Shown in pieces: positions 12,340 to 25,691 of a DNA stretch of 64,000 nt. Position numbers and translations under genes: made by a program. Source of the stretch: Cupriavidus oxalaticus (GTDB taxonomy: Bacteria > Pseudomonadota > Gammaproteobacteria > Burkholderiales > Burkholderiaceae); the NCBI RefSeq assembly GCF_004768545.1, contig NZ_CP038634.1, positions 1,674,001 to 1,738,000 on the forward strand, in the 5' to 3' direction. Positions within the stretch are counted from its first letter, which is position 1, and every line of letters starts with the position of its first letter. Below the pieces are notes generated by a model. The model worked only from the letters and a program-made list of their open reading frames with translations. It did no database searches and was not told the origin of the DNA.

Positions 12340-15051
<2,712 letters not shown>

Positions 15052-19143: not shown

Positions 19144-19992
19144 ATGAATCAACCCGAAACGCCGGTGGTGGACTGCCACTTCCATACCTTCGATGCCGGC
19201 CCGGCAGCGCCCTCCGCTCGCTACCGGCCCCCGTATGCCGCCACGCTGCCGGACTGGCGGCTGCTGGCCGGGGCGCTTGGCGATCCGTTCGGGGTGGTGG
19301 TGCAGACCAGCTTCCTCGGCACCGACAACTCCGCGCTGCTGGCGGCGCTGCGCGCCATGCCGGCGCGGCTGCGCGGCGTCGCGGTGGTCGATCCCGACGT
19401 ATCCGATGCGGCATTGCGCGAACTGGACGACGCCGGCGTGCGCGGCATCCGGTTGAACCTCTATCGCGATCCCGGCTGGCAGCGCATCGGCACAGCGCCG
19501 TGGCGCGCATTGTTCGCACGTATCGCCGCGCTGGGCTGGCATGTCGAGCTCCATACCGACAACGGCGACGGCAGCGCGGTGCTGGCCGCGCTGGATGGCG
19601 TACTGGGCGAGTCAGGCGTACCGGTGGTGCTCGACCATTTTGGCAGGCCGGGCGCGGCGGGCGTGGCGGACCCGGTGTTCAGCGTGGCCGCGGCGGTGCG
19701 AGCGCGTCGGCAGGTGTGGGTCAAGTTCAGCGCGCCATACCGGTTGGTGGCGCCGGGGGCGTGGCGCGAACTGGCGCAGCGCTGGCTGGAAGTGGTCGGT
19801 GCCGACCGGCTGCTTTGGGGCAGCGATTGGCCGTGGACCAATCATGAAGCCGGGGAGCGGGCGGGGGAGTGCGGGGAAACCAGCCGCTGGCCCGGAACCG
19901 CGCCGGCGGAGGCTTCGCTGAATGAAGCGCTGCGCTGGCGCAATGCCGCGGCGCTCTACGGGTTTGCGATCGCGCCAGGGACGGCGGACTAG
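19144..19992 (+). CDS. Amidohydrolase-2 family TIM-barrel hydrolase
   Basis: The 282-residue product is of the metal-dependent amidohydrolase-2 type, which includes 2-pyrone-4,6-dicarboxylate lactonase and related lactonases. Metal-site motifs seen are D-C-H-F-H at residues 10-14, V-V-L-D-H-F-G-R-P mid-protein and the terminal L-L-W-G-S-D-W-P-W. Substrate is not determined; a lactone or a carboxylic acid imported through one of the adjacent Bug receptors is possible. The gene is divergent from the GntR regulator, and its 3' end overlaps the converging DUF2894 gene by four bases. Confidence 0.88.
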   Translation: MNQPETPVVDCHFHTFDAGPAAPSARYRPPYAATLPDWRLLAGALGDPFGVVVQTSFLGTDNSALLAALRAMPARLRGVAVVDPDVSDAALRELDDAGVRGIRLNLYRDPGWQRIGTAPWRALFARIAALGWHVELHTDNGDGSAVLAALDGVLGESGVPVVLDHFGRPGAAGVADPVFSVAAAVRARRQVWVKFSAPYRLVAPGAWRELAQRWLEVVGADRLLWGSDWPWTNHEAGERAGECGETSRWPGTAPAEASLNEALRWRNAAALYGFAIAPGTAD

Positions 19993-20681
19993 CCCGCCGC
20001 CTTGCGCGGCCTGGCGCGGGTGGTCTTCTTCGCGCTGGTGGCCCGCACCGCTTCGTTCTCGGCCGGTGCGCCGCCGCGATGCAGTTGCTCCAGCCACGCC
20101 ATCGCCTCGACATACGAGAAGAACTGCTCCAGGTAGCCTGGCGACACCTCATGCATCAGCGTCAGCGCACGATGCACGAGGTGGTCGGAATTGAGCGGTC
20201 CGGCATTGCCCGGCAACTGCGCCTGCGACTGCCGCAACTGCCGGCTCACGCTGACGCGCGACCACGTGTCGCGGAAATAGTCGACCAGTTCCGGCTCGGG
20301 TTCGGGACGCACGGCGCGCGCCGGTGCAGCGGCGCGCGGCGCAGGGGCGCTCGGTGCGGACGCGATCCCTGCAGCGCGCGTATTAGCCTTGATGTAGCCG
20401 ACCAGTCCGGCAAGCGTGCCGATCGGATTTGCGGTGGCTTCCTGTTCGGTTGCTGCGGCCGTTTCGCGCCGCGCAGCGTCTTGCGCCACGGCTTCGCGGT
20501 AGCTGTCGACCAGCGCCGCCAGCCGCGCATCCAGCATCTGCCGCACCGCGCCGTCATGGCCGGCCGAGCGCCGCGCCAGCGCATCGATCAGCCGGAAGCG
20601 CACCGGGTCGACGCCGGCGGCATCGCTGTCGCGCCAGGCGTCGAGCTGCGCGCGTGCGCTTGCGGCGACGTCTTCAGTCAC
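19989..20681 (-). CDS. DUF2894 protein, fourth gene of the MotAB/Zor-like operon
   Basis: A 230-residue protein matching DUF2894 in layout: a charged, helical N-terminal third beginning M-T-E-D-V-A-A-S-A-R-A-Q-L-D-A-W, an Ala/Pro-rich linker (about 112-132), a conserved domain with V-D-Y-F-R-D-T-W-S-R-V-S-V and L-N-S-D-H-L-V-H-R-A-L, and a basic Lys/Arg/Ala tail. No membrane segment or enzyme motif is visible. It overlaps the OmpA/MotB-like gene by eight bases, so it is translated from the same mRNA. Function unknown. It could be a cytoplasmic adaptor of the membrane complex. Confidence 0.85.
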   Translation of the reverse strand: MTEDVAASARAQLDAWRDSDAAGVDPVRFRLIDALARRSAGHDGAVRQMLDARLAALVDSYREAVAQDAARRETAAATEQEATANPIGTLAGLVGYIKANTRAAGIASAPSAPAPRAAAPARAVRPEPEPELVDYFRDTWSRVSVSRQLRQSQAQLPGNAGPLNSDHLVHRALTLMHEVSPGYLEQFFSYVEAMAWLEQLHRGGAPAENEAVRATSAKKTTRARPRKAAG

Positions 20682-21324
20682 GCGGCTTCCCCGTCCCCAT
20701 GGTCACGCGCGGCACCGGCGCGATTTCCACGCGCCGGTTCTTCGCGCGGCTCCCGGCATCGGTATTGGCCGTGACCGGCTGCTGCGAGCCGAAGCCCGCG
20801 GAGAACAGCGAAGCGGGCGGCACGCCGGCATCGATCAGCGCGCGCGTCACGGTCAGCGCGCGCTGCGCCGACAGCTCCCAGTTGTCGGCGAAGCGGCGGT
20901 TGCCCTCGCGTACCTGCTGGTCGTCGGTGAAGCCGCTGACCATCAGCATCTCGTCGCGCGTGCGCAGGTAGGCCGACAGCGGTGCGGCCAGGCTGCGCAA
21001 CAGCTCGCGGCCCTCGGGCTGCAGCTGGTCGGAGTTCAAGGCAAAGAGCACGCTGCCGCTGATGCCGATGCGCCCGTTCACCAGCGTCACGCGCCCGGCG
21101 GCGAGCGGGCCGGCCAGCGCCTGCTCCAGCGTCTGGCGGCGCTGCGCTTCTTCCTGCCGCTGCCGCACCTCGTCCTCAAGCCGCGCCGACAGTTCGAGCT
21201 GCACGCCGATGACGCCCAGCAGCACCAGCACGAACGCGCCCAGCAGCACCGACATCAGGTCGCCGAAGACCGCCCAGGCCGGCACCGTCGGCTCGGCGCC
21301 GGCGTCGATGTAGTCGTCCTTCAT
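20674..21324 (-). CDS. MotB/ZorB-like OmpA-domain membrane protein
   Basis: A 216-residue protein with one N-terminal transmembrane helix (about residues 15-44) bearing a single acidic residue, Asp22, in the context W-A-V-F-G-D-L-M-S-V-L-L-G-A-F. This is the pattern of the proton-binding Asp in MotB, ExbD and ZorB. A short coiled coil follows (45-75), then an OmpA-type peptidoglycan-binding domain (about 85-205) with N-W-E-L-S-A-Q-R-A and the terminal N-R-R-V-E-I. Its start overlaps the stop of the large DUF802 gene by four bases (ATGA). It is therefore expected to form the B subunit of an ion-driven complex with the DUF802 protein. Confidence 0.9.
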   Translation of the reverse strand: MKDDYIDAGAEPTVPAWAVFGDLMSVLLGAFVLVLLGVIGVQLELSARLEDEVRQRQEEAQRRQTLEQALAGPLAAGRVTLVNGRIGISGSVLFALNSDQLQPEGRELLRSLAAPLSAYLRTRDEMLMVSGFTDDQQVREGNRRFADNWELSAQRALTVTRALIDAGVPPASLFSAGFGSQQPVTANTDAGSRAKNRRVEIAPVPRVTMGTGKPRD

Positions 21325-24197
21325 GCCGCCTCTGCGCGCGGTGCCTGCCGGCCGCCCAGATGCTGCAGGTCTTCCAGGATCTGCTTCTGCGACAGCATGC
21401 TGAGGTCGACCACCTCGCGCGCCTGCGCCACGTAGTAGGCCAGCTGCTCATCGCTGCGCGCCATCGACTTGTCGAGCGCGGCCTCGATGCGCTGCAGCTG
21501 TTCGGAGAGCTTGTCGTTGGAGGCGCTGAACATCTGCACCGCCACGCCGAAGGCTTCGCCCAGGCTCGCCACCTCGACGGCGCTGCCGGTGACCTGCGCC
21601 GCGGCCTGCGCCAGGCGGCCGGTCTCGGACTCTACCTGCTCGGTGAAGCGGCCGCCGACGCGCTCCAGCAGCTCGGACGTGGTCGCGAGCAGCGTGTCGA
21701 CCGCGGCGCGCTGGCCGGTGGAGGCGTGGTTCACGGCGTCGAGCAGCGTGCCCAGCGTTTCCAGCATGCGGCTGCGCTCTTCCAGCATGGTGTTGTCGCG
21801 GGCCATGCCTTCGGTGAGCTTCTGGCGCAGTTCGGCGATGACTTCGGCCGCGGCCCTGGGCGCTTCGGCGGACGCCTGCATCAGGCGCGCGACTTCGGCG
21901 ATGGTGCTGCTGGCGTGCGCCTCGGCCTGCGCGGTGATGTCGCGCGCGGTCTGCGCCAGCGTGTCGCAGATCTCCTGCTGGCGGCTGGCGCTGTGGCTGC
22001 CGGCCTGTTCCCATTGCTGGCGCAGCGAGCCGGCCATGCTGTCGAGGTGGCCGGTCCAGGCGGCCAGGCGCTGTTCGTCGCGCGCGGCCAGCTCGGCCTG
22101 CAGGGCGGCGGCGGCCCTGGGCGCCTCGGCGGCGGCCTGCACCAGGCGCTCGATTTCGGCCAGCGTGCCGCTGGCGTGCGCCTGCGTTTCGGTGGAAATC
22201 GCTTGCGCGGTCTGCGCCAGTGCTGCGCAGATTTCCTGCTGGCGGGTGGCGGTCTGCGCGCCCGCCTGCTGCCATTCCTGGCGCAGCGTGGCGGCCATCG
22301 CGGCGAGGGCTTCGGTCCAGGCTGCGAGGCGTTGCTCGTCGCGCGCGCTCAGTTCGGTCTGCAGGGCCAGCGCGGCCTTCGGCGCGTCGGCGGCAGCCTG
22401 CACCAGACGCTCGATCTCTGCGATGGTGCCGCTGGCGTGGGCTTGCGCCTGCGCCGAGATGTCGCTGGCAGTCTGCGCCAGCGCGGCGCAGATTTCCTGC
22501 TGGCGGCTCGCGGCCAGTGCGCTCGCCTGTTCCCATTCCCCGCGCAGTCCGGCGGCCATGTTGCCAAGCGCGTCGGTCCAGGCTGCGAGGCGTTGTTCGT
22601 CGCGCGCGCTCAGCTCGGCCTGCATGCCCAGCGCGGCCTTGGGCGCGTCGGCGGCGGCCTGCACCAGCCGCTCGATCTCGGCGATGGTGCCGCTGGCATG
22701 CGCTTGCGCCTGCGCGGCGATCTCGCGCGCGGTCTGCGCCAGCGTCTCGCTGATTTCCTGCTGGCGGCTCGCGGCCTGCGCGCTGGCCTGGTCCCACTGC
22801 TGGCGCAGCGCCTCGGTCATGCTGCCGAGCGTGCCGGCCCACGCAGCCAGGCGCTGCTCGTCATGCGATGCCAGGCCCGCCTGCAGGTCGGCGTGCGACT
22901 GGCCCACCGTGCACACCAGCGACGCCGCCTGCTGTTCGAATGCCGCCGTGGCGGCGGCCAGCGCCTGCTGGTTGTCGGCGGCGAGCTTCTCGCCGGTGCG
23001 GGCCTGCTGCGACAGGGCCTCGGTCCACGCCCGCGCGGTGCTGGCGGAGGTTGTTTCCAGCCGTGCCGCGACCTGCTCGACCAGGCCGGCCGAACGTTGC
23101 TCGAATGCCTGTGCAAAGCCGTCGAGCGCGCCGCGCAGTTCGCCCGTCAGGACTTCATTGCTGCGCTGCTGGCTGGCCAGCGCTTCGTTCCAGATCCCGG
23201 CGACGCCGGCGGTCGAGGTCTCGAAGCGTGCCGAGATGCCTTCGAGCTGCTGCTGCACGGACTGCGTGACGGCGTCGCGCATGGCGGCGGTCTCGCGCGC
23301 CAGGCCGGCCATGGTCGCTTCCACGGCCGGCTGGATCGCCGTGCCGGCGGCGCGCGCGCTGTCGGCAACGCTGTCTTTCAGCGATTGCCCGACCGCGGCG
23401 GCCAGCTGCGTGTACACCGTTTCGGTCTTGCCGTGGAAGGCTTCCTGGCTGGCCGCCAGGCGCTCCGCCATGGCCTGGTTCTGCTGCTCCATGGTCGCCA
23501 TCATGGCCTGCAGCCGGTCGACCAGCGCCGGCATGGCATCGGCCTGGCGCTGCAGCAGCCGGAACGACTCGTCGCGCTGGTGGCTGCGGGAATAGGGGCG
23601 CAGCGTGGTGGCGATGCGCGCATCGAGCGCCTGCGCGGCCTGCACGCGTTCGCGCCGGCACAGGGCCGACAGCAGCCCCAGCATGGCCGACGTGGCCACG
23701 CCGGCCACCGAGGTGCCGAAGGCGAAGCCCAGCCCCTTCACCGGCGCCGCCAGCGACGCGCGGATCGCCTGCAGGTCGGTCGCGGTTTCCAGCGCCATGC
23801 CGGTGCCGCGCAGCGTCGACACCATGCCGAGGAACGTGCCGAGCATGCCCAGCAGCACCAGCAGGCCGACCAGGTACGGCGTCAGCGCCGGCCCCGGCAG
23901 CGCTACGCGCTCGCCCTCGACGCGCAGGCGCACCGCGTTGCGCAGTCCCGCGGGCAGGCGCTCCAGCCAGCCATCCAGGCTTGCCGGCGCTTCGGACAGC
24001 CCCTGCACCGCCTGCGCCAGCCCCAGCGTGCCCTGCCGGTAGCGCAGCAGCTCATGCGCGCCGGCCACGTAGCAGGCGCCGATCAGCAGCGTGACCGACA
24101 ACGCCAGCGCATTCGAGCCGGCATAGCCTGCGGCGATCCAGCACATGGCCGCCAGGCCCGCCAGGAAAACAACAAGATGGAAGAAGTATCGGTTCAT
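21321..24197 (-). CDS. DUF802 protein: MotA/ExbB/ZorA-like channel with long repeat coiled-coil tail
   Basis: A 958-residue protein. Four transmembrane helices are predicted by eye (about 5-23, 29-47, 107-126, 156-177). The third and fourth carry the MotA/ExbB/ZorA hallmark: G-M-L-G-T-F-L-G-M, then G-L-G-F-A-F-G-T-S-V-A-G-V-A-T-S. From residue 180 on the protein is an alanine/glutamine-rich helical tail of nearly 780 residues, predicted cytoplasmic, with four tandem 87-residue repeats near residues 439-786. A channel domain plus long intracellular tail is the plan of ZorA in Zorya defence. The gene starts ten bases after the DUF3348 stop. Function is not established. The fold relationship is by motif and needs structural comparison. 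Confidence 0.9.
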   Translation of the reverse strand: MNRYFFHLVVFLAGLAAMCWIAAGYAGSNALALSVTLLIGACYVAGAHELLRYRQGTLGLAQAVQGLSEAPASLDGWLERLPAGLRNAVRLRVEGERVALPGPALTPYLVGLLVLLGMLGTFLGMVSTLRGTGMALETATDLQAIRASLAAPVKGLGFAFGTSVAGVATSAMLGLLSALCRRERVQAAQALDARIATTLRPYSRSHQRDESFRLLQRQADAMPALVDRLQAMMATMEQQNQAMAERLAASQEAFHGKTETVYTQLAAAVGQSLKDSVADSARAAGTAIQPAVEATMAGLARETAAMRDAVTQSVQQQLEGISARFETSTAGVAGIWNEALASQQRSNEVLTGELRGALDGFAQAFEQRSAGLVEQVAARLETTSASTARAWTEALSQQARTGEKLAADNQQALAAATAAFEQQAASLVCTVGQSHADLQAGLASHDEQRLAAWAGTLGSMTEALRQQWDQASAQAASRQQEISETLAQTAREIAAQAQAHASGTIAEIERLVQAAADAPKAALGMQAELSARDEQRLAAWTDALGNMAAGLRGEWEQASALAASRQQEICAALAQTASDISAQAQAHASGTIAEIERLVQAAADAPKAALALQTELSARDEQRLAAWTEALAAMAATLRQEWQQAGAQTATRQQEICAALAQTAQAISTETQAHASGTLAEIERLVQAAAEAPRAAAALQAELAARDEQRLAAWTGHLDSMAGSLRQQWEQAGSHSASRQQEICDTLAQTARDITAQAEAHASSTIAEVARLMQASAEAPRAAAEVIAELRQKLTEGMARDNTMLEERSRMLETLGTLLDAVNHASTGQRAAVDTLLATTSELLERVGGRFTEQVESETGRLAQAAAQVTGSAVEVASLGEAFGVAVQMFSASNDKLSEQLQRIEAALDKSMARSDEQLAYYVAQAREVVDLSMLSQKQILEDLQHLGGRQAPRAEAA
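21840..22883 (-). repeat. Four tandem 261-bp coding repeats in the DUF802 gene
   Basis: The units start (minus strand) at 22883, 22622, 22361 and 22100, exactly 261 bp apart, each encoding 87 residues. Each contains D-E-Q-R-L-A-A-W, then R-Q-Q-E-I, L-A-Q-T-A and Q-A-H-A-S, with 60-85 percent identity judged by eye. Copies 1-2 end P-K-A-A-L, copies 3-4 end P-R-A-A-A. The array sets the length of the cytoplasmic tail and could expand or shrink by unequal exchange. Confidence 0.9.
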
Positions 24198-24207
24198 GGG
24201 GTCCTGG

Positions 24208-24951
24208 TCAGCTGCCGCGCAGCGCGGCGAGCAATCCTTCGACGGGTTGGAAGCGTATTTCCAGCTCGGCCAGCAATACGCTTTGCATATCCTTGCGAAA
24301 CACGGCCAGCCACGCGCCGGGCGCGACCGGGGCTGCGGCGGCCGGCTTTGTGGCGGCCTGGGCCTCGGCCAGCGCCGCGGCTTCCGCCTGGCGCAAACGC
24401 TGGAAATGCCCTTCCAGCAGGGTCGGCACGCTGCCGAGCACGCTTTGCTCGCGCGCGCCCAGCACGCGCTCCATTACTGCATCGACCATGGCCAGCCGGG
24501 CCATGTCCGGCGCACGCGTCGACAACGCCGCCCGCAACCGCCCGCGCAAGGCGCCGATCGCGGTTTCCATGGACTGCTGCTGCGACACGTAGCGGTGGCG
24601 GTAGATGGCGAAGTCCACCTGCGCATCCACGGCCTCGGACGGTCGCCCCGGCCCGCGCCGGCGTGCGGCGAGGGCGTTGTCCCCCGCGATGGCGTCGCTC
24701 AGCGCCGCGCGCACGCGTGCGCACTCCTGCTCTTCGGCGGTGGCGCCGGAGGCACGTGCAACGGCCGGCCCCGCGCCCGGCGCGGCTTTCAGCGCCGCCG
24801 ACAACGCGATCGCATCCGGCCAGCCCAGCCATTGGCTCAGCTGGCCCGAAAGTGACGTTGCAGGAGGTGGGGCGTCGGCGTCGGTCAGGCGCGCCAGCAG
24901 CCGGACTAGCGTCGGACCGCTGAAACCTGTGCGCCGGGGCTCTTGGGACAT
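24208..24951 (-). CDS. DUF3348 protein, first gene of the MotAB/Zor-like operon
   Basis: The 247-residue product fits DUF3348: a conserved N-terminus (R-T-G-F-S-G-P-T-L-V-R-L-L-A-R-L), an acidic/Ala-rich middle, the motif V-D-F-A-I-Y-R-H-R-Y near residue 112, and a helical C-terminus with P-T-L-L-E-G-H-F-Q-R-L and W-L-A-V-F-R-K-D-M-Q. No membrane helix or signal peptide is seen. It is the promoter-proximal gene of the four-gene set and lies ten bases before the DUF802 gene. Function unknown. The constant association with DUF802 and DUF2894 in betaproteobacteria is from memory of the families. Confidence 0.85.
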   Translation of the reverse strand: MSQEPRRTGFSGPTLVRLLARLTDADAPPPATSLSGQLSQWLGWPDAIALSAALKAAPGAGPAVARASGATAEEQECARVRAALSDAIAGDNALAARRRGPGRPSEAVDAQVDFAIYRHRYVSQQQSMETAIGALRGRLRAALSTRAPDMARLAMVDAVMERVLGAREQSVLGSVPTLLEGHFQRLRQAEAAALAEAQAATKPAAAAPVAPGAWLAVFRKDMQSVLLAELEIRFQPVEGLLAALRGS

Positions 24952-25133: not shown

Positions 25134-25643
25134 TCAGGCCGCCAGCTTCTGCAGCGACGCCACCGTGCGGACGCAGGCCTGCGCCGCCTCGCGGCCCTTG
25201 ACCACGAAATGCTCGGCAAAGAAGCGATGGTGCTCGTCGTGCTCATGGAAGCTCTTCGGCGTCAGCACGGCCGAGAACACAGGGATCTCGGTGTCGAGCT
25301 GGACGCGCATCAGGCCGCTGATGACGGCATCGGCGACGAATTCATGCCGGTAGATGCCACCGTCGACGACAAAGCCGCTGGCGACGATGGCGGCGTACTT
25401 GCCGGACCTGGCAAGCCGTTGCGCATGCAGCGGGATTTCGAAGGCCCCGGGGACATCGTAGATATCGATGGCATCCGCGGCGACGCCGAGCTTTGCCATT
25501 TCGACCACGAACGCGTCGCGCGCACGATGGACGATATCGGCATGCCATTGGGCATGGATGTAGGCAATGCGCTTGCCTTCGGGGAGGGAAAAGCCGGCCG
25601 CGGGTGCGGTGGCGCGCTGGAATGCAGAGACAGGCTGATTCAT
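25134..25643 (-). CDS. ribH: 6,7-dimethyl-8-ribityllumazine synthase (RibH2-like)
   Basis: A 169-residue lumazine synthase, which condenses 5-amino-6-ribitylamino-uracil with 3,4-dihydroxy-2-butanone 4-phosphate in riboflavin synthesis. Visible motifs are I-A-Y-I-H-A-Q-W-H at the ribityl-binding strand, V-P-G-A-F-E-I-P (substrate loop) and H-D-E-H-H-R-F-F-A-E-H near the catalytic His. The length and the Trp in A-Q-W-H fit the decameric type II (RibH2) branch rather than the icosahedral housekeeping enzyme. The ATG at 25643 was chosen because homology starts there. It stands alone without ribD, ribE or ribBA but has an FMN riboswitch in its leader. Confidence 0.92.
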   Translation of the reverse strand: MNQPVSAFQRATAPAAGFSLPEGKRIAYIHAQWHADIVHRARDAFVVEMAKLGVAADAIDIYDVPGAFEIPLHAQRLARSGKYAAIVASGFVVDGGIYRHEFVADAVISGLMRVQLDTEIPVFSAVLTPKSFHEHDEHHRFFAEHFVVKGREAAQACVRTVASLQKLAA

Positions 25644-25691
25644 GGTGTTCCTGTACGGATGGAGTTGGCCAGAATCAGGGCGCACGAGACT

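What the first reader, a model, noticed from the sequence alone, without database searches (positions are those of the whole stretch)
19989..24951. Four-gene MotAB/ZorAB-like operon: DUF3348, DUF802 channel with long tail, OmpA/MotB-like partner, DUF2894
Seen: coupled genes (10-bp gap, 4-bp ATGA overlap, 8-bp overlap). The 958-residue protein has four membrane helices with the MotA/ExbB/ZorA motif and a tail of about 780 residues. The 216-residue partner has one membrane helix with a single Asp (D22) and a peptidoglycan-binding OmpA domain. Known: MotAB, ExbBD and ZorAB are ion-driven 5:2 rotary complexes, and ZorA has a long intracellular tail. Inference: this is a further 5:2 motor whose tail, with the DUF3348 and DUF2894 proteins, carries out an unknown cytoplasmic job (defence, envelope tension sensing or transport).
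Basis: partly seen in the sequence, partly recalled or inferred. Interest (0 to 1): 0.8.

Follow-up and report, generated by a model that had tools for sequence, protein, structure and literature searches.

The report
Known Zorya III motor, extendable tail
This four-gene operon is a known type of bacterial anti-phage machine (Zorya type III, a membrane motor with a long internal rod), and comparing its relatives shows that the rod changes length almost only by whole turns of its helix, as expected of one continuous shaft.

Summary
In detail: four tightly coupled genes, a 958-residue MotA-like protein with a very long tail, a MotB-like partner with a membrane Asp (D22) and an OmpA domain. It is not a new kind of motor. 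All four proteins match PADLOC models of Zorya type III, named in 2021; one relative protected E. coli from phages (PMC8565338, passages read). D22 aligns with the ion-carrying Asp of solved ZorB and is Asp in 125 of 125 aligned relatives. Two further points. (1) The ZorA tail carries an 87-residue tandem repeat; relatives carry arrays of other unit lengths, and ZorA runs from 555 to 1229 residues. Between conserved base and tip, 24 of 26 distinct length changes (up to 130 residues) lie within 0.2 turn of a multiple of 3.64 residues, 0 of 1.1 million randomisations as good; linkers in the partner proteins show no such rule. The tail is best read as one register-locked helical shaft. My searches found this nowhere in print. 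(2) The operon is near-core in large-genome Burkholderiaceae (98 of 109 sampled genomes of at least 3.3 Mb) and absent from 50,697 phage records. The effector is unknown.

The parts
24208..24951 (-). DUF3348 protein, first gene (called ZorF in the text of Payne 2021, ZorG3 in PADLOC-DB 2.0)
   Evidence: Pfam PF11828 E 3.5e-94; PADLOC ZorG3 E 1.3e-94; AlphaFold2 model all-helical, mean pLDDT 81.5
21321..24197 (-). ZorA type III (DUF802), 958 aa
   Evidence: PADLOC ZorA3 E 0; Pfam DUF802; base profile's only PDB hit at E 0.01 is ZorA type I, 8vvn_C, E 2.9e-6
23358..24197 (-). ZorA base, residues 1-280: four membrane segments and the MotA/ExbB-like core
   Evidence: hydropathy; T121, G161, T162, S163, S170 identical in 125 of 125
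21849..22862 (-). tandem array in the ZorA shaft, unit 261 bp = 87 aa, 3.9 copies
   Evidence: Tandem Repeats Finder, 79% matches, score 1197; self-comparison peak at offset 87
21324..21848 (-). conserved ZorA tip, residues 784-958
   Evidence: mean column identity 0.78 in 125 rows; Y921 in 121 and Y922 in 122 of 125
20674..21324 (-). ZorB type III: one membrane helix plus OmpA/MotB peptidoglycan-binding domain, 216 aa
   Evidence: PADLOC ZorB3 E 3.6e-114; Pfam OmpA; PDB hits MotB, PomB, ZorB
21259..21261 (-). codon of D22, the putative ion-carrying Asp
   Evidence: aligns with D24 of 8VVN ZorB and D26 of 8QYD ZorB; D in 125 of 125
19989..20681 (-). DUF2894 protein, last gene (ZorG in Payne 2021 text, ZorF3 in PADLOC-DB 2.0)
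   Evidence: Pfam PF11445 E 4.5e-59; PADLOC ZorF3 E 2.5e-77

Best explanation
The operon is a Zorya type III system on the second large replicon of a Cupriavidus-related genome. Five ZorA and two ZorB would form an ion-driven stator-like motor in the inner membrane, anchored to peptidoglycan by the OmpA domains of ZorB (inferred from solved type I and II complexes). The ZorA tails bundle into one continuous alpha-helical shaft, about 114 nm long in the window protein if fully extended, ending in a conserved tip. Lineages lengthen the shaft by tandem duplication of segments, but almost only changes that keep the helical register (multiples of about 3.64 residues) persist, so base and tip keep their angular relation. 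On envelope disturbance by a phage, ion flow would turn ZorA, and shaft and tip would pass this to DUF3348 and DUF2894, which stand in place of the partner modules of types I and II. Shown here: family membership, conserved ion and peptidoglycan residues, strict co-occurrence, tail arrays and register rule. Reported by others for relatives: 5:2 assembly, need for tail and ion flow (types I, II), phage protection (one type III system). Inferred: rotation of the shaft, tip contact with DUF3348/DUF2894, what these do.
For: All four proteins hit the Zorya III models. D22 aligns with D24 of ZorB 8VVN, named critical in PMC11890865 section 6, and is D in 125 of 125. The ZorA base profile hits in the PDB copy, at E 0.01, only ZorA type I. 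DUF3348 and ZorB3 occur together: 9 of 220 genomes of the order have both strongly, none one alone; the same 98 of 150 genomes of the family have both. Tail: hydrophobicity of 26 repeat-free tails has a period of 3.65-3.68 in the shaft; the base-to-tip distance, measurable in 175 of 181 ZorA, differs from the commonest by 26 distinct non-zero amounts of at most 130 residues, 24 of 26 within 0.2 turn of a multiple of 3.644 (40% expected; 23 of 26 at 3.638), 0 of 1,100,000 randomisations as good; linkers of DUF2894 and DUF3348 take nearly every small length and show no such period, P 0.56-0.60.
Against: No complex was modelled; the 5:2 state, rotation and ion flow are not tested. DUF3348 and DUF2894 show no nuclease or helicase kinship, so the effector step is unknown. 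The near-core distribution is unusual for a defence system and allows another or a second role. One proline per repeat unit (519, 606, 693, 780) could break the helix, against one unbroken shaft. Length changes of 23, 99 and 121 and the 103-residue unit of L133 are out of register. In a B. cenocepacia infection transcriptome Zorya III was not among the systems called transcriptionally active (PMC12584637, one passage).
Confidence: 0.8

Rival explanations
1. The type III ZorAB motor of Burkholderiaceae is chiefly a core envelope or cell-biological device (peptidoglycan or envelope stress sensing, force transmission), and phage protection is a by-product or an effect of expression in E. coli.
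For: Present, in one copy, in 98 of 109 sampled family genomes of at least 3.3 Mb and in 0 of 41 smaller ones; 0 of 50,697 phage records, no relative in the viral contig scan, only 27 of 72,556 plasmid records, all replicons of 366 kb or more; 0 of 10 window neighbours match PADLOC.
Against: In two other families only 32 of 99 and 35 of 101 genomes have DUF3348, and 7 of 54 good genomes of the genus lack it, a patchiness that fits an optional system. 7 of the 27 plasmid records are typed as mobilizable. One type III system protected E. coli from phages (PMC8565338). Core defence systems exist: type III Zorya is printed as a highly conserved one in R. solanacearum (PMC13064858, passages seen).
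Confidence: 0.2
2. It is a true proton or sodium motor for another purpose, a flagellar MotAB paralogue or a Tol/Exb-like energiser, misnamed Zorya.
For: The OmpA domain of ZorB matches MotB chains best in PDB.
Against: The membrane-helix profile of ZorB and the base profile of ZorA hit solved Zorya proteins first; the partners are the DUF3348 and DUF2894 proteins that define Zorya III; no flagellar Pfam family among 10 neighbouring ORFs.
Confidence: 0.04
3. The tail register rule is only the ordinary constraint on any coiled coil, and array length is neutral drift with no functional meaning.
For: The period found (3.64) is what a nearly straight helix bundle needs; tail length is the same within each of three sets of strains (2, 3 and 3).
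Against: The unit state changed at least 23 times on a tree of 89 rows built without the shaft, and type I and II sizes are stated to be well conserved within each family (PMC11890865), so drift alone would have to act in type III only.
Confidence: 0.45

Closest known systems
Zorya type III (PADLOC ZorA3, ZorB3, ZorF3, ZorG3; Payne et al. 2021, PMC8565338)
   Same: all four proteins and the gene set; Pfam families DUF3348, DUF802, OmpA, DUF2894
   Different: nothing found that would exclude membership; this copy has a four-unit 87-residue array in the ZorA tail, activity untested
Zorya type I and II ZorAB (PDB 8VVN, 8VVI, 8QYD; PMC11890865)
   Same: ZorA core, ZorB membrane helix with the Asp, peptidoglycan-binding domain, long ZorA tail
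   Different: no ZorC/ZorD or ZorE match among the neighbours scanned; type I/II component sizes are described as well conserved, type III ZorA here runs from 555 to 1229 residues
MotAB / PomAB flagellar stators
   Same: four-segment MotA-like and one-segment MotB-like proteins, OmpA domain
   Different: long tail, other partners, no flagellar family among the neighbours scanned; not a member
ExbBD / TolQR
   Same: 5:2 ion-driven motor fold (from the literature)
   Different: ZorB carries an OmpA domain; no TonB, TolA or Pal family among the neighbours scanned

Membership tests
Zorya type III | ZorA: MotA/ExbB-like core with long C-terminal extension | tested here: met
   PADLOC ZorA3 E 0; PDB hit ZorA type I; tail of about 778 residues
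Zorya type III | ZorB: one membrane helix with conserved Asp plus OmpA/MotB domain | tested here: met
   D22 in 125 of 125; D134, N148, L151, S152, R155 in 125 of 125 (their role in peptidoglycan binding is recalled)
Zorya type III | flanking DUF3348 and DUF2894 genes | tested here: met
   order kept in 103 of 103 loci with all four genes
Zorya type III | 5:2 ZorA:ZorB assembly | not testable with these tools
   no complex prediction available
Zorya type III | anti-phage activity | not tested
   reported by others for the Stenotrophomonas system (PMC8565338, passages)
Zorya type I or II | ZorC/ZorD or ZorE beside ZorAB | tested here: not met
   0 of 10 neighbouring ORFs match PADLOC; of 10 in a mostly overlapping set, 7 have Pfam names (metabolic, transport, one GntR regulator) and 3 none
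flagellar MotAB | MotA-type stator within flagellar context | tested here: not met
   ZorA base profile has no MotA hit in PDB at E 0.01; no flagellar Pfam family among 10 neighbouring ORFs

The most novel reading that the evidence does not exclude
Type III ZorA is a torsionally stiff drive shaft of evolvable length: selection repeatedly lengthens it by in-register tandem duplication, because the distance and angle at which the motor presents its tip to the DUF3348/DUF2894 partners matter, and in large-genome Burkholderiaceae this machine is a resident core device, not a mobile defence island.
Probability: 0.25. Interest if true: 0.75.

Novelty: new member of a known kind. Interest (0 to 1): 0.45.

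Why it matters
How the turning of a membrane stator becomes phage defence is, as far as I know, open for all Zorya types. The register rule says, from sequence alone, that the type III tail is one continuous shaft whose length varies severalfold while the base-tip angle is kept. That makes a clean test possible: change shaft length by in-register and out-of-register amounts and see whether defence needs length, angle or both. Type III also lacks any recognisable nuclease in the operon, so its effector is a separate open question.

Tried and rejected
Considered and dropped: a new motor family (four matches to Zorya III); flagellar or Exb/Tol paralogue; mobile defence island; phase-variable repeat array, because tail length is equal within three sets of strains (2 C. 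metallidurans with identical proteins, perhaps one strain; 3 P. caribensis; 3 P. largidicola and kin) and repeat units of the window are 63-76% alike while matching units of a sister species are 89-100% alike.

Weak or negative: DUF3348 and DUF2894 profiles hit nothing convincing in PDB (best E 0.02 and 0.15); DUF2894 members hit no other Pfam family convincingly. The AlphaFold2 model of DUF3348 could not be compared with a library. DUF2894 was not folded. Vertical descent by rpoB identity was only moderate (Spearman 0.49 over 95 of the 98 genomes; left out: the window's genome, one without an rpoB match, one with a split match): genus g133 has rpoB 93-94% but ZorB 75-77%, no higher than genera at rpoB 85-87%. 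The unit-length test alone is weaker than the distance test and uses the same proteins: 13 units P 0.00025, 10 units with at least 50% local identity P 0.005, 9 of these of at least 40 residues P 0.018. Two weak DUF3348 hits in the order (24-27 bits) were treated as no hit. Rows dropped: 6 of 181 ZorA lacked an anchor residue; ZorA cut by a contig edge or under 500 residues or 450 were left out, among them L082 with a 348-residue ZorA, not examined; 11 long-branch rows were barred and near-identical rows thinned, 125 to 89, for the careful tree, whose bootstrap had not quite settled. One of 38 four-gene loci was not in order and was not examined.
Full report
WHAT IS THERE. Four genes on the minus strand, 24951 to 19989, in the order DUF3348, ZorA (DUF802), ZorB (OmpA), DUF2894, with a 10-bp gap, a 4-bp and an 8-bp overlap. 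ZorA has 958 residues with four hydrophobic segments within residues 3-180; ZorB has 216 residues with one. The window lies in contig C1 (2.41 Mb) of a 7.97-Mb genome whose rpoB is on the 3.70-Mb contig C2, so the operon sits on a second large replicon or a second large piece. The nearest named relatives are Cupriavidus.

WHAT IT IS. All four proteins match the PADLOC models of Zorya type III: ZorA3 E 0, ZorB3 4e-114, ZorF3 3e-77, ZorG3 1e-94; ZorA and ZorB also match type I and II models weakly. Pfam agrees. Payne et al. 2021 (PMC8565338, passages read) defined type III by a Zor gene pair flanked by DUF3348 and DUF2894 genes, counted 6,401, and reported for each of three tested systems, the Stenotrophomonas nitritireducens Zorya III among them, reduced plaquing of at least one phage in E. 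coli. The membrane-helix profile of ZorB (10 sequences) has as best PDB matches ZorB 8VVN (E 1e-5) and ZorB 8QYD (E 0.02), with D22 on D24 and D26; PMC11890865 (section 6, part 1 of 2 read; passages) names D24 as the critical Asp. The ZorA base profile (12 sequences) has a single PDB match at E 0.01 or better, ZorA 8VVN chain C. D22 is D in 125 of 125 aligned ZorB.

CO-OCCURRENCE AND SPREAD. Genus: DUF3348 in 51 of 60 genomes and DUF2894 in the same 51. Order, drawn evenly: 9 of 220 genomes have full-length DUF3348, the same 9 have ZorB3 at 345 bits or more, next best 93 bits. Two other families: 32 of 99 and 35 of 101; class, drawn evenly: 8 of 369. Plasmid records: 27 of 72,556, all of 366 kb or more, 7 of the 27 typed as mobilizable. 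Phage records: 0 of 50,697. Viral contigs: 31 pattern matches, none a relative. 0 of 10 neighbouring ORFs match PADLOC. The downstream amidohydrolase and GntR genes recur beside 16 of 103 other loci, all of the window's genus, at least two genomes counted twice. Genus labels of 74 named rows need 13 changes on the ZorAB tree, 8 being the least for nine genera, so descent is mostly but not strictly vertical; rpoB against ZorB identity gives Spearman 0.49. This is a resident system of large-genome Burkholderiaceae. That type III Zorya is highly conserved within R. solanacearum is already in print (PMC13064858, passages seen).

THE TAIL. The window tail holds 3.9 copies of an 87-residue unit. Of 143 complete ZorA (some genomes twice), 105 have an array and 38 none; units are 87 (44), 62 (13), 51 (11), 131 (11), 80 (9), 69 (5), 149 (3), 22, 29 and 33 (2 each), 95, 103 and 113 (1 each). 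Of 99 with units of 40 or more, 68 have a length of 698 plus a whole number of units within 4 residues. Of the 38 without an array, 25 have 697-702 residues. Over all fetched complete ZorA the range is 555 to 1229, median 830, n = 180. On a tree of 89 ZorAB built without the shaft, the unit state needs at least 23 changes, gains and losses not told apart. Base (residues 1-280) and tip (last 175) stay conserved (mean column identity 0.77 and 0.78), while in 26 repeat-free tails the middle, 301-500, is least conserved, 0.66-0.68.

THE REGISTER RULE. I measured the distance from P223 (base) to Y922 (tip) in 175 of 181 ZorA. The commonest distance is 438 (33 of 175). The 26 distinct non-zero differences of up to 130 residues are -91, -66, -55, -33, -29, -22, -4, 4, 23, 44, 51, 58, 62, 69, 76, 77, 80, 87, 91, 99, 109, 113, 116, 120, 121, 124. 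The best period between 2.2 and 8 is 3.644 residues (mean cosine 0.78; next best 0.41). At this period 24 of 26 are within 0.2 turn of a whole number, 40% being expected (23 of 26 at 3.638); 0 of 1,100,000 sets with each difference moved at random by up to 9 residues did as well, and 0 of 60,000 sets of random differences. The same measure on variable linkers of DUF2894 (53 differences) and DUF3348 (33 and 44) gives no period (P 0.56 to 0.60). Six unit lengths listed after the period had been fixed at 3.638 (18, 40, 47, 55, 76, 91) also fit, P 0.0002, with two cautions: an offset of 55 had been seen before as a weak signal, and short or weakly alike units (18, 22, 55) may be picked for being in phase; 40 and 47 have local identities of 0.63 and 0.53. 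Hydrophobicity of 26 repeat-free tails has its own period of 3.65-3.68 in the shaft and 3.57-3.58 towards the tip; the strongest peak, 17.7, exceeds the maximum of 10.7 in 200 permutations. The reading: a helix bundle without slips from base to tip, nearly straight, whose length may change but whose register may not. That coiled coils accept insertions mainly in register is general knowledge (recalled); its reach over 303 to 962 residues and its repeated use to lengthen the tail are what is notable. PMC11890865 states that component sizes are well conserved within types I and II, so type III differs.

PARTNERS. DUF3348 is predicted all-helical with five long helices (mean pLDDT 81.5, pTM 0.77, 41 sequences). 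The profiles of DUF3348 and DUF2894 resemble no nuclease, helicase or other enzyme in PDB, nor do the window proteins in Pfam. So the effector module that PMC11890865 describes for type II (ZorE) has no visible counterpart in this operon.

LITERATURE. Searches for DUF802/DUF3348/DUF2894 (3 papers), Zorya III under five spellings (5 papers), Zorya with ZorA, ZorB and motor (6), 'ZorA tail' (0) and Zorya/ZorA with tandem repeat or coiled-coil (7 papers, listing seen only) showed no report of the tail arrays or the register rule; a Nature paper on the Zorya mechanism (recalled) is not held and was not read, nor were supplements. In a B. cenocepacia infection transcriptome only the first one or two genes of Zorya III changed, and it was not among the systems called transcriptionally active (PMC12584637, one passage).

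VERDICT. A sound observation of a known system. Its most interesting side is the tail.

Noticed in passing
window 19989-20681 and 24208-24951: Naming conflict: the text of Payne 2021 and PMC11890865 call DUF3348 ZorF and DUF2894 ZorG, while the PADLOC-DB 2.0 models call DUF2894 ZorF3 and DUF3348 ZorG3.
   Followed up: partly
window 21360-24923, plus strand: A 1187-codon open frame runs antisense to ZorA, probably a by-product of high G+C and the repeats; no evidence of a gene was sought.
   Followed up: no
L204 (Variovorax paradoxus), L203 (Azoarcus), L202 (Aquabacterium): Zorya III on replicons of 366 kb to 2.5 Mb among mostly metabolic and regulatory genes; the Variovorax ZorA has a 47-residue unit.
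   Followed up: partly
window 21858-22643 (ZorA residues 519, 606, 693, 780): Each 87-residue unit keeps one proline at the same place, an oddity for a helix that is otherwise read as unbroken.
   Followed up: no
window 13765-15051 and 25134-25685: An enolase gene and a lumazine synthase gene lie near the operon, possibly extra copies on the second replicon; not checked.
   Followed up: no
genomes G004, G005, G011, G021, G024, G027, G028: Near-complete genomes of the same genus that lack both DUF3348 and DUF2894; whether this is a clean loss was not examined.
   Followed up: no
L082 (Cupriavidus sp. UYMMa02A): ZorA frame of only 348 residues and a DUF3348 frame of 167: a broken or badly assembled copy, not examined.
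   Followed up: no
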